Source of the DNA: a virus
IMG/VR virus record: IMGVR_UViG_3300033553_000792
Location: 1 to 23,715 of that record
Reading direction: 5' to 3' (one strand)
Length of the DNA stretch: 23,715 nt
Below the pieces are notes generated by a model. That model was given only the letters and a program-made list of their open reading frames with translations, was not told where the DNA came from and made no database searches. Shown here piece after piece: positions 1 through 3,497 of the stretch (position 1 is the stretch's first letter; each line of letters starts with the position of its first letter). Position numbers and translations under genes: made by a program.

Positions 1-123
1 TTATCCCTGTCCTCTTGATGCTTTTATTAACCCCTTAATAAAACTATTAATCTTTGTAAGCTCCGAGATTGTTAAGTTATCATTTAGTCTTTCCATTATC
101 TCTTTTAACAATCTAATTCTCAT
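1..123 (-). CDS. 40-residue SOS-controlled peptide, unknown function
   Basis: Small open frame that starts with ATG eight bases after an AAGGGAG ribosome binding site and ends with TAA at the very edge of the window. The peptide begins MRIRLLKEIMERLNDN and is charged and probably helical, with no membrane segment or signal peptide, so it does not look like a hydrophobic SOS toxin. What makes it credible is its promoter: about 45 bases upstream lies a near-consensus sigma-A promoter whose spacer is a perfect LexA box. It is therefore likely expressed on DNA damage, and may be the first gene of an operon continuing outside the window. It lies beyond the probable attachment site, so it could be a host gene. 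I do not recognise the family. Confidence 0.55.
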   Translation of the reverse strand: MRIRLLKEIMERLNDNLTISELTKINSFIKGLIKASRGQG

Positions 124-169
124 CTTGCTGTCTCCCTTCATCCATTTCTATGTCGATTTCTTGTTTTTA

Positions 170-198
170 ATTATAGCACGAACATATGTTCGTGTCAT
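170..198 (-). promoter_or_regulatory. Sigma-A promoter for the 40-residue peptide
   Basis: On the minus strand the -35 element is ATGACA (193-198, five of six consensus bases), the spacer is exactly 17 bases, and the -10 element is a perfect TATAAT (170-175). It points at the 40-residue frame at 123-1. The spacer is filled by a LexA operator, so repression by occlusion of RNA polymerase is expected. Confidence 0.8.
177..194. promoter_or_regulatory. LexA (SOS, Cheo-type) operator
   Basis: The core CGAACATATGTTCG (179-192) matches the Gram-positive LexA/DinR consensus CGAAC-N4-GTTCG exactly, and the perfect palindrome extends to 18 bases (177-194). It sits between the -35 and -10 elements of a near-consensus promoter. 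Seen directly: palindrome and placement. Known: this motif is the SOS box of Bacillus and Clostridium relatives. Inferred: DNA damage derepresses the gene to its left. Confidence 0.85.
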
Positions 199-280: not shown

Positions 281-325
281 AAAAAAGCTGTAAAACCTTT
301 TTTCTATAATGGTTTACAGCTTTTT
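281..325. terminator. Bidirectional rho-independent terminator
   Basis: The arms AGCTGTAAAACC (286-297) and GGTTTACAGCT (311-321) pair with one extra A in the left arm. They are flanked by an A-run on the left and a T-run on the right, so the hairpin is followed by U-rich RNA on either strand. It lies just downstream of the Ltp-domain gene (minus strand) and can end its transcript while insulating it from the region to the left. Confidence 0.7.
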
Positions 326-384: not shown

Positions 385-1074
385 TTATAATCCTGTTGAA
401 TCAGTTCCATATGTTGCTTGTTCCACTGTGAATCCTTCATATATTAATTGATCAATTAGTCCGCTTCTAGAAAAAGAAGTATAATCCAAATAGTCTTGTG
501 CGCTTTTTTCTGCTTGTTCCATCCAATCAGCTCCGGAATTATCAACACCATATATGGCATCTTCTTCATCGAAACCTTCGTACTTTAATTGCTCTATTAA
601 ACCGCTTCGTGAGAAAGAAGTATAATTCAAATAGCTTATAGCGCTACGCAAAGCATTTTTTTGAGCTACTGTCTCACTAGAAGTTTCTATGCTAGTAACT
701 TGCGGTGCTTCTACTGGTTGTTCAGATACAGGCTCGCTTACTGTTTCTACTACAATTACTTCTGTATCAATTGCTTCCGTTTCAGTTTGTTCAGGTAAAT
801 CTTCTTCAGCAGGTTCTGTTTGCACCGGATCTGCTTTTTCAATACTAATCGTTTCACCGTTTGCTTCTTCATTGGCTAAAGTATCTGTACTGGTATCACC
901 TTTTTCACCTAAATTTCCTAACATACCTAGTACAATAAAAACCATTAAAACCATAAACCACGTTCTTTTGTAGATTGGCTGTTTGTTAACTGCTCCACAA
1001 CTTGGACATGTTATCTTCCCCTTAGCAGATATTTCATGATCACATGACTTGCATTTTCTTAATTTCTTGTCCAT
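385..1074 (-). CDS. Zinc-ribbon membrane protein with two Ltp superinfection-exclusion domains
   Basis: The 229-residue protein has three parts. An N-terminal zinc ribbon has Cys8-x2-Cys11 and Cys23-x2-Cys26. One transmembrane segment follows at about residues 38-55, then a long acidic linker (about 58-138) rich in Glu, Thr and Val. Two near-identical C-terminal repeats (about 141-182 and 189-229) share the motif YTSFSRSGLI with a following YEGF. These repeats match the host-cell-surface Ltp family, known from streptococcal phage TP-J34, where Ltp blocks DNA entry of related phages. There the protein is a lipoprotein; here there is no lipobox, and anchoring is by the membrane helix, with the zinc ribbon likely inside the cell and the repeats outside. 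It starts after AGGAGT, has its own promoter, and lies beyond the late terminators, as expected for a gene expressed in the lysogen. Exclusion is inferred from family and position. Confidence 0.8.
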   Translation of the reverse strand: MDKKLRKCKSCDHEISAKGKITCPSCGAVNKQPIYKRTWFMVLMVFIVLGMLGNLGEKGDTSTDTLANEEANGETISIEKADPVQTEPAEEDLPEQTETEAIDTEVIVVETVSEPVSEQPVEAPQVTSIETSSETVAQKNALRSAISYLNYTSFSRSGLIEQLKYEGFDEEDAIYGVDNSGADWMEQAEKSAQDYLDYTSFSRSGLIDQLIYEGFTVEQATYGTDSTGL

Positions 1075-1117
1075 TATTCAATACTCCTCTCCCATTTTTA
1101 TATATAGTTACCTATTA

Positions 1118-1216: not shown

Positions 1217-1246
1217 TAAGGTCCTTGAAATTAATCAAGGACCTTA
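1217..1246 (-). terminator. Rho-independent terminator of the late operon
   Basis: A perfect 11-bp stem (TAAGGTCCTTG at 1217-1227 with CAAGGACCTTA at 1236-1246) has an 8-base loop. On the minus strand it is followed at once by TTTTTAT, and there is no T-run on the plus side, so it ends leftward transcription coming from the endolysin gene. Confidence 0.85.
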
Positions 1247-2546: not shown

Positions 2547-3497
2547 TCATAGCTTAATAGTAAACTCTTTCTTTGCTGCATCCCACTTCACTTCTCCACC
2601 AAATGCTTCTCCTATTGCCCTAAGTGGTACCAGAGTTCTTTTGTTCGAGTCAATGATGGCTGCCGTGTCCATGATTACTTTCTTTCCGTCTACCTTAAGA
2701 TGTTTATCACCTATTACACCTTTTATTTCCATATACATCCTTTCTGGCAAGGTAAATAATCCATGCCCACTCTTATTGTCAAATTCCGGTTCTAGCAAGT
2801 CTATACAGTTTATGTGTATTAAATCTCTTGCTTGCTGCCTGGTTAATTTTTTGCCTTTACGGCTCATGTATAGCCAAAGCATGCCTGCAGCTACTGGTCC
2901 TGATGTTGATGTACCATTAAACCAATGTAATTTGGAGTAATCAGCAGTTACTGGGAACCATATGTCTGTGAAGGCAACTGCATCAAGTCCTTCACCACCG
3001 TTTGAGTAGTCTGCTACCTGATTACGATTATCTTCAAATGCTCCAATTGATATTATCCAAGGTAATTGTGATGGGTAGCTTATAATATTTTCATTTCCCT
3101 TGTTGCCAGACGATGCTATTACGATGATATCATGTTCTTCAAGGCGCTCAATTTCACTGTCTGTCGGACCACTAAAACTACAATTCACAACGGCTATATC
3201 TTTTTTGTTTTCTATAATCCAGTCTACTATTTCTTTTTTCTCTGAGCTAAAAAAATTAAAGCTTACTATTCTGGCGTTAGGTATTACTTGTCTAGCTACA
3301 GCACATACATTTGTGTTATGACCACTCTTACCATCTAAGCGGAAGTTATCCAGGACTATATCTACGTTGTCATGAGGCCTGGGCTTACCATTACTATCTA
3401 GGATTACATACATGCCAGGGTCTTTCTTTATGGGTAGATCTTGATATTTTGATATTCGTGCTTGGTCAAATTCAGCCTTATTTTCTTTTATCATCAT
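2547..3497 (-). CDS. Subtilisin-like (S8) serine protease with C-terminal copper-amine-oxidase-N domain
   Basis: The 316-residue protein carries a recognisable subtilase triad. The Asp is probably Asp34 in YVILDSNG (Asp50 is an alternative). His60 lies in GHNTNV, Asn132 in the oxyanion-site motif SSGNKG, and Ser197 in NGTSTSGP. The last 60 or so residues (about 260-316) match the copper amine oxidase N-like domain found on many clostridial surface proteins, including the hallmark RTLVPLRAIGEAFGGEVKWD. No signal peptide or propeptide is seen. The gene lies between the tail-tip protein and the lysis genes, so the product may ride on the virion and cut host surface protein, process a tail protein, or aid lysis. 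Enzyme class is well supported; target and location are inferred. It starts after AGGAGGAGG; a second ATG one codon later is equally possible. Confidence 0.85.
   Translation of the reverse strand: MMIKENKAEFDQARISKYQDLPIKKDPGMYVILDSNGKPRPHDNVDIVLDNFRLDGKSGHNTNVCAVARQVIPNARIVSFNFFSSEKKEIVDWIIENKKDIAVVNCSFSGPTDSEIERLEEHDIIVIASSGNKGNENIISYPSQLPWIISIGAFEDNRNQVADYSNGGEGLDAVAFTDIWFPVTADYSKLHWFNGTSTSGPVAAGMLWLYMSRKGKKLTRQQARDLIHINCIDLLEPEFDNKSGHGLFTLPERMYMEIKGVIGDKHLKVDGKKVIMDTAAIIDSNKRTLVPLRAIGEAFGGEVKWDAAKKEFTIKL

What the first reader, a model, noticed from the sequence alone, without database searches (positions are those of the whole stretch)
385..1074. Superinfection-exclusion repeats on a zinc-ribbon membrane anchor
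Two Ltp repeats sit on an acidic stalk after a transmembrane helix and an N-terminal Cys4 ribbon, unlike the known lipoprotein form. With its own promoter behind the late terminators, it looks like a lysogenic exclusion gene. The inside zinc ribbon suggests a link to an intracellular partner, which would be new for Ltp proteins.
Basis: partly seen in the sequence, partly recalled or inferred. Interest (0 to 1): 0.6.

Follow-up and report, generated by a model that had tools for sequence, protein, structure and literature searches.

The report
Ltp exclusion protein with zinc-ribbon anchor
A bacterial virus resident in its host carries a gene that probably keeps rival viruses out; the known blocking domain is held in the cell membrane by a general-purpose zinc-ribbon anchor instead of a fat molecule, a variant that turns out to be fairly common.

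Summary
The minus-strand gene at 385-1074 (229 aa) encodes a Cys4 ribbon (C8, C11, C23, C26), a basic patch, one membrane helix, an acidic stalk of about 80 residues and two Ltp repeats (PF07553, E 3e-29). The modelled repeat pair superposes on phage TP-J34 Ltp (4eqq) at 1.0 A. Best reading: a lysogenic-conversion gene whose outward-facing Ltp pair blocks DNA entry by incoming siphophages. No activity was tested. The ribbon-Ltp order is not unique: 16 of 80 viral Ltp loci examined have it, the ribbon label changes about 11 times on a 94-row Ltp tree, and the same kind of ribbon plus helix carries unrelated outer domains. So the ribbon looks like a swappable membrane anchor and does not by itself point to an intracellular partner. 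It is nevertheless under strong purifying selection (dN/dS 0.03). In 11 of 14 ribbon-Ltp records the gene lies within 1.3 kb of a repressor-type or integrase gene (2.7 expected). In a sister prophage integrated at the tmRNA gene it lies at the end far from the integrase, behind lysis. The "own promoter" match is no better than chance. Verdict: new variant of a known kind, moderate interest.

The parts
385..1074 (-). gene for a 229-aa membrane-anchored Ltp-repeat protein (start ATG at 1074, stop included)
1084..1093 (-). ribosome-binding site GGGAGAGGAG
   Evidence: read; present in similar form in L003
973..1074 (-). residues 1-34: cytoplasmic Cys4 ribbon (C8, C11, C23, C26) and basic patch, net charge +5
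   Evidence: the four Cys are invariant in 10 of 10 aligned anchors
910..972 (-). residues 35-55: single membrane helix (signal anchor), no lipobox cysteine
   Evidence: (helix 35-55)
670..909 (-). residues 56-135: acidic disordered stalk, net charge -21, dN/dS 0.51 and indels against the sister
538..663 (-). Ltp repeat 1 (PF07553)
   Evidence: (E 5.6e-16)
400..528 (-). Ltp repeat 2 (PF07553)
   Evidence: (E 3.2e-16)
1217..1246 (-). intrinsic terminator that ends the late/lysis operon upstream of the gene
   Evidence: z -5.4
282..325 (-). terminator-like hairpin behind the gene
   Evidence: inverted repeat I1; z -3.6; kept in L003
1118..1146 (-). weak promoter-like match TTGTGA-17-TAAAAT upstream of the gene; not better than chance
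   Evidence: 7 found in the region, 5.9 expected; no counterpart of the same sequence in L003

Best explanation
A prophage-borne superinfection-exclusion protein of the Ltp-repeat family, anchored as an uncleaved N-in/C-out membrane protein. The Cys4 ribbon and basic patch stay in the cytoplasm, one helix crosses the membrane, and an acidic flexible stalk of about 80 residues holds two helix-turn-helix Ltp repeats outside. In a lysogen the repeats would catch the tape measure protein of an incoming siphophage as it leaves the tail, so that the DNA channel does not form. The ribbon plus helix does the job of the lipid anchor of TP-J34 Ltp and is an exchangeable generic anchor. Shown here: domain order, predicted fold of the repeats, constraint, location. 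Inferred: topology, zinc binding, expression in the lysogen, exclusion and its target.
For: PF07553 at 101 bits; PHROGs 4980 and 15667, both labelled superinfection exclusion, match nearly full length without the ribbon. The modelled repeat pair fits 4eqq, Ltp of TP-J34: Z 17.1, 1.0 A over 96 residues. Ribbon-Ltp genes lie within 1.3 kb of a repressor-type or integrase gene in 11 of 14 records, 2.65 expected, 0 of 200,000 simulations as high. The sister prophage sits at the tmRNA gene with recombinase and repressor at one end and the Ltp gene at the other, behind lysis. Purifying selection on ribbon and repeats. Anchor exchange: 11 label changes on the tree; a near-identical anchor on a tRNA_anti-like domain and a ribbon-TM on a thermolysin. 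Published: the repeat domain is the active part, and a secreted form without lipid anchor excludes more phages (PMC3952083, section 16 and passages).
Against: No activity, expression or topology is measured. The Ltp domain also occurs in CbpL of pneumococcus, a choline-binding surface protein for which no exclusion role is reported in the passages read (PMC5137146). No convincing promoter of its own. In the window record itself I recognised no integrase or repressor, so the prophage state is inferred from the sister. One ribbon-Ltp gene lies in a tail operon (L098) and one near nothing telling (L105).
Confidence: 0.7

Rival explanations
1. The ribbon binds a dedicated cytoplasmic partner (repressor, protease, DNA or another prophage protein) and couples exclusion outside to a response inside.
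For: The ribbon evolves under the same strong constraint as the repeats (dN/dS 0.03); the four Cys are invariant in 10 of 10 aligned anchors.
Against: Ribbon-TM modules carry unrelated outer domains; of 9 genome ORFs that match nearly the whole anchor profile, only 1 (the sister itself) has Ltp. Many Ltp proteins keep the basic patch and helix without a ribbon. Folding of the ribbon alone would explain the constraint.
Confidence: 0.12
2. A surface protein with another role (cell-wall binding, adhesion, host fitness) carried by the prophage as cargo; exclusion is not its function.
For: Ltp domain in CbpL, which is tied to colonisation and is not a lipoprotein (PMC5137146, passages); varied outer segments beside Ltp in the survey.
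Against: Closest solved fold is the exclusion protein itself; gene location next to lysogeny-type genes in 11 of 14 records; sparse in genomes, 11 of 398 and 11 of 198.
Confidence: 0.13
3. A late or lysis-phase protein: made during lytic growth to keep released progeny from being wasted on the dying cell and its neighbours.
For: It sits directly behind the lysis genes, same strand; no convincing promoter of its own.
Against: A strong terminator separates it from the lysis operon; the sister keeps the gene while the lysis cassette upstream is different (Amidase_3 instead of subtilase and M15).
Confidence: 0.08
4. An intracellular regulator: zinc ribbon plus helix-turn-helix repeats with a RecX-like arrangement, next to an SOS-controlled gene.
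For: RecX is the next fold after Ltp (Z 7.1 to 9.3); a LexA-type box lies at 179-192.
Against: A membrane helix and an acidic stalk lie between ribbon and repeats; Z under 13 for helical folds may be only a common arrangement (note); the PDB sequence search returned Ltp alone.
Confidence: 0.02

Closest known systems
Ltp of Streptococcus thermophilus phage TP-J34 (PDB 4eqq; PF07553)
   Same: Two HTH repeats with the same fold (Z 17.1, 1.0 A), acidic, flexible spacer, prophage gene.
   Different: TP-J34 Ltp is a lipobox lipoprotein with a serine-rich spacer and its gene sits in the lysogeny module (PMC3952083, passages); here ribbon plus helix, long acidic stalk, and a place behind the lysis genes.
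Ltp-domain protein CbpL of Streptococcus pneumoniae
   Same: Ltp domain on a surface protein without lipobox.
   Different: CbpL has an Excalibur domain and choline-binding repeats and is held by teichoic acid; its authors present it as unique among reported Ltp members in lacking the anchoring cysteine (PMC5137146, passages).
Lactococcal Sie2009-type exclusion proteins
   Same: N-terminal membrane-spanning helix for display outside the membrane (introduction of PMC3952083, passage).
   Different: Not related in sequence as far as tested: the only Sie-like family that rang is PHROG 8545, weakly and over the helix region (8e-6, residues 30-85).
gp41 of Cutibacterium acnes phages
   Same: Claimed Ltp-like, N-terminal helix and a disordered stretch.
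   Different: Its outer domain is predicted mostly beta, cystatin-like (PMC11480721, section 20), not the Ltp fold.
Generic ribbon-TM surface proteins of Bacillota (for example L131 with a tRNA_anti-like domain, L132 with a thermolysin)
   Same: Cys4 ribbon, single helix; L131 also has the basic KKPIYKR patch.
   Different: Unrelated outer domains.

Membership tests
Ltp repeat family (PF07553) | PF07553 repeats above the curated cut-off | tested here: met
   101.2 bits against 23.2, two stretches
Ltp repeat family (PF07553) | two HTH repeats with the fold of 4eqq | tested here: met
   predicted model, Z 17.1, rmsd 1.0 over 96 residues
Ltp repeat family (PF07553) | acidic character | tested here: met
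   repeat part net -10, stalk net -21
Ltp lipoproteins in the strict sense | lipobox cysteine and lipid anchor | tested here: not met
   the only four Cys are in the N-terminal ribbon; so it is filed as a PF07553 repeat protein, not as an Ltp lipoprotein
Ltp superinfection exclusion | carried by a temperate phage, in or near the lysogeny functions | tested here: inconclusive
   no integrase or repressor recognised in the window record; the 80% sister is in an integrated prophage at the tmRNA gene; 11 of 14 ribbon-Ltp records close to repressor-type/integrase genes
Ltp superinfection exclusion | blocks DNA injection of siphophages | not testable with these tools
   needs plating and DNA-entry assays
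Ltp superinfection exclusion | acts on the tape measure protein | not testable with these tools
   no complex prediction offered; own tape measure protein has only a slightly basic last stretch (+3, residues 801-849)
Zinc-ribbon proteins (Zn_Ribbon_1/3, DZR) | CxxC-x(n)-CxxC ribbon | tested here: met
   pattern and predicted strands
Zinc-ribbon proteins (Zn_Ribbon_1/3, DZR) | match to a Pfam ribbon model above its cut-off | tested here: not met
   window protein: only ZNF512_C2HC, 21.5 of 27 bits; of eight other ribbon-Ltp proteins scanned only L010 passes (Zn_Ribbon_1 26.4 of 25); short models, so this says little
Zinc-ribbon proteins (Zn_Ribbon_1/3, DZR) | binds zinc | not testable with these tools
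   needs metal analysis

The most novel reading that the evidence does not exclude
The ribbon is a working cytoplasmic half: it senses or reports, through the membrane helix, that an incoming tail has been caught outside, or it ties the exclusion protein to a prophage regulator, so that exclusion and prophage control are coupled across the membrane. The conserved ribbon in several separately arisen ribbon-Ltp lines would then be selected for this and not only for anchoring.
Probability: 0.1. Interest if true: 0.65.

Novelty: new variant of a known kind. Interest (0 to 1): 0.36.

Why it matters
The papers read describe Ltp exclusion proteins as lipobox lipoproteins, with CbpL presented as the exception (PMC5137146, passages). 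Here 16 of 80 viral Ltp loci have a ribbon-helix anchor and only 18 of 80 look like lipoproteins by a simple rule, so the anchor is evidently exchangeable while the repeats are kept. That makes a clear experiment possible: the same repeats on lipid, helix or ribbon-helix anchors, to see whether anchor and reach set which phages are excluded, as the published secreted form already hints. If the ribbon matters beyond anchoring, exclusion would have an inside half that, as far as the papers read go, has not been looked for.

Tried and rejected
Unique domain order: rejected, recurrent. Ribbon as a sign of an Ltp-specific partner: weakened by ribbon-TM modules on other outer domains. Own promoter: not supported above chance. 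Search for the right attachment site in the sister: no direct repeat of the tmRNA end found within the 477 bases behind the gene, so the prophage's right end is not reached. PDB profile search with the anchor alignment gave only scattered zinc-finger, ribbon or RING pieces (best 1.8e-4), nothing informative. NCBIfam had no model for the protein. Megablast of the whole window against the phage collection: no match. A Rfam hit in L182 (SurA, 22.5 bits against a gathering score of 100) was discarded. Literature: searches for Ltp with zinc ribbon returned no paper that joins the two by its listing; the one paper that holds all three terms is on Campylobacter and was not opened. This covers only the open-licence PMC library. 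Bebeacua 2013 and Sun 2006 were not read, only as cited in the papers read. A search for papers on zinc-ribbon membrane proteins such as TcaA (a name I recalled) gave nothing useful.

Limits: anchor classes come from a simple hydrophobicity and pattern rule. The 80 viral loci are the best 80 of 232 ranked by likeness to the window protein, which favours ribbon proteins. The 1.3 kb threshold was chosen after the distances were seen; at 600 b 9 against 1.42 expected, at 3 kb 11 against 4.73 expected (P 1e-4). Three near-copies (L088, L095, L109) were dropped before that count; L042, whose ribbon stands before an in-frame stop, was kept in it and counted as ribbon in the tree. Only 23 of 88 inner branches of the tree are starred, the bootstrap had not settled, and starred branches force only 4 ribbon changes.

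Full report
What is there. The minus-strand ORF 385-1074 (229 aa) is the first gene behind the lysis end of a siphophage-like late region: terminase, portal, head protease, capsid, major tail protein, tape measure, Dit and minor tail proteins are recognisable, followed by a subtilase, a holin and an M15 peptidase. The protein has C8-x2-C11-x11-C23-x2-C26, the basic stretch NKQPIYKR, one helix (35-55), an acidic stalk (56-135, net -21) and two Ltp repeats. Pfam PF07553 scores 101 bits. PHROGs 4980 and 15667 (superinfection exclusion) match from residue 28 or 36 to nearly the end; PHROG 14275 (no function) matches residues 4-90, the anchor half. The record is an IMG/VR virus record, here without a recognised integrase or repressor and so probably a fragment.

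Fold. AlphaFold2 with a 24-row alignment gives pLDDT about 98 for the repeats, about 80 for the ribbon and under 60 for most of the stalk. Foldseek and VIA-align place the repeats on 4eqq, the solved Ltp of phage TP-J34 (E 6e-6; Z 17.1, 1.0 A over 96 residues); RecX follows far behind (Z 7.1 to 9.3), within the range that the tool warns is common for helical folds.

Selection. Against the sister in L003 (an 80% identical protein in the Firmicutes bacterium HGW-Firmicutes-2 assembly) dN/dS is 0.03 in the ribbon part (34 codons), 0.15 in the helix, 0.51 in the stalk and 0.03 in the repeats (94 codons; 92 identical residues). The ribbon is therefore really translated and constrained. The stalk behaves as a spacer. 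This is one pair of sequences with few changes per region.

Survey. A scan of viral contigs with an alignment of relatives found 232 stretches that encode relatives; the best 80 loci were returned. By a simple rule, 16 of 80 (16 of 74 distinct proteins) have a Cys4 ribbon before the helix, 18 look like lipoproteins, 35 have one helix or signal, 10 several helices and 1 has no helix found. In L042, counted among the 18, the ribbon is present before an in-frame stop. Three of the 16 ribbon proteins also have a lipobox-like Cys at the helix. The ranking favours likeness to the window protein, so 16 of 80 is not an unbiased rate. In genomes, 11 of 398 in the sister's phylum have PF07553, at least two of them with a ribbon (G001, G235), and 11 of 198 in the phylum of the Myceligenerans genome. 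On a 94-row tree of the last two repeats the ribbon label needs 11 changes (shuffled mean 17.5, 0 of 500 as low), of which well-supported branches force 4: clustered, but gained or lost several times.

Is the ribbon special to Ltp? A profile of ten ribbon-helix anchors rings in 80 of 199 genomes of the phylum, mostly on the ribbon alone. Among the loci returned, 9 ORFs match from profile position 6 or earlier to 47 or later; one of them is the sister Ltp itself (L130), the other eight carry no Ltp. L131 has almost the same anchor (CKHCGAEIAASAKTCPQCGGKNKKPIYKRPWF) with a tRNA_anti-like outer domain, and L132 has a ribbon-TM before a thermolysin. Conversely several Ltp proteins keep the basic patch and WWF helix without a ribbon. 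The simplest reading is an exchangeable anchor that fixes N-in topology.

Where the genes lie. Repressor-type (HTH_3), tyrosine integrase and serine recombinase genes were mapped in 14 ribbon-Ltp virus records (14 of 17, three near-copies left out). In 11 of 14 the Ltp gene is within 1.3 kb of one of them; random placement gives 2.65, and none of 200,000 simulations reached 11 (the threshold was picked after seeing the distances, other thresholds are given under Tried and rejected). Examples: L010 between an HTH_31/HTH_3 repressor and a serine recombinase; L108 between an S24-type repressor and an integrase. The exceptions are L009 (gene at the end of a linear record), L105 (nothing near) and L098 (directly behind tape measure genes). 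L009 and the sister in the HGW-Firmicutes-2 contig look like the same prophage: 100% identical over the 5,000 and 1,225 bases compared. There the recombinase abuts the 3' end of the tmRNA gene beside smpB (SmpB and RNase R recognised by eye), with an HTH repressor next to it, and the Ltp gene is at the opposite end, behind lysis genes. That is the place where many phages keep lysogenic-conversion genes (recalled; PMC3952083 also gives lysis and finally lysogenic conversion as the end of its module order). The lysis cassette upstream differs between window and sister (subtilase, holin and M15 against Amidase_3/NAGPA), while the Ltp gene and the stretch behind it are kept.

Mechanism. Published work on TP-J34 Ltp, as reported in PMC3952083 (passages and section 16) and PMC4737114 (passages): Ltp outside the membrane stops DNA injection, escape mutations map to the tape measure gene, direct binding was not shown, and a secreted form without lipid anchor excludes more phages. 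A helix-anchored form with the same fold should therefore work in the same way. This is inference; nothing here measures activity. The tape measure protein of the window phage has a slightly basic end (+3 in its last 49 residues), which says little.

Verdict. Observation confirmed; exclusion is the likeliest function (0.7); a dedicated inside partner is possible but not indicated (about 0.1). It is a PF07553 repeat protein, not an Ltp lipoprotein in the strict sense. CbpL's authors state that all other reported Ltp members carry the anchoring cysteine (PMC5137146, passages), and two searches found no paper that joins Ltp with a zinc ribbon, so the ribbon-anchored form seems undescribed in the library searched: a new variant of a known kind.

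Noticed in passing
window 1-198 (-): A perfect LexA/SOS-type palindrome CGAACATATGTTCG (179-192; expected 0.01 by chance; the box consensus is recalled) sits inside the 17-base spacer of an 11-of-12 promoter (ATGACA/TATAAT, 198-170) in front of a 40-aa ORF (123-1, MRIRLLKEIMERL...). The ORF is 100% identical in the sister, where a strong hairpin follows it, and was found in 1 of 101 genomes (the sister only); no PHROG. It looks like a tiny SOS-controlled prophage gene.
   Followed up: partly
L098:2451-6786: A ribbon-Ltp gene lies directly behind tape measure genes, inside the tail operon: the exclusion-type domain next to its presumed target.
   Followed up: no
L184:512-861 and L183: The sister prophage is integrated at the 3' end of the tmRNA gene (tag AEDNLAFAA) beside smpB, with a serine recombinase abutting it.
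   Followed up: partly
L131:1072-1668 (-): Nearly the same ribbon-KKPIYKR-helix anchor carries a tRNA_anti-like domain; BFVD also lists a phage tRNA_anti-like protein and a double-zinc-ribbon phage protein as weak neighbours.
   Followed up: partly
L090:7546-8910 (+): A TIR-domain protein (TIR_2, ThsB_TIR) is the next called gene behind a ribbon-Ltp gene and an integrase, possibly a second defence gene.
   Followed up: no
window 2547-3497 (-): A subtilase with a copper-amine-oxidase-type N domain (PF07833) is encoded between the tail genes and the holin; an unusual protease for a phage lysis region.
   Followed up: no
L010:5995-6753 (+), L051:5977-6624 (+), L086:5758-6777 (+): Three ribbon-Ltp proteins also have a lipobox-like Cys in or behind the helix, as if both anchors could be used.
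   Followed up: no
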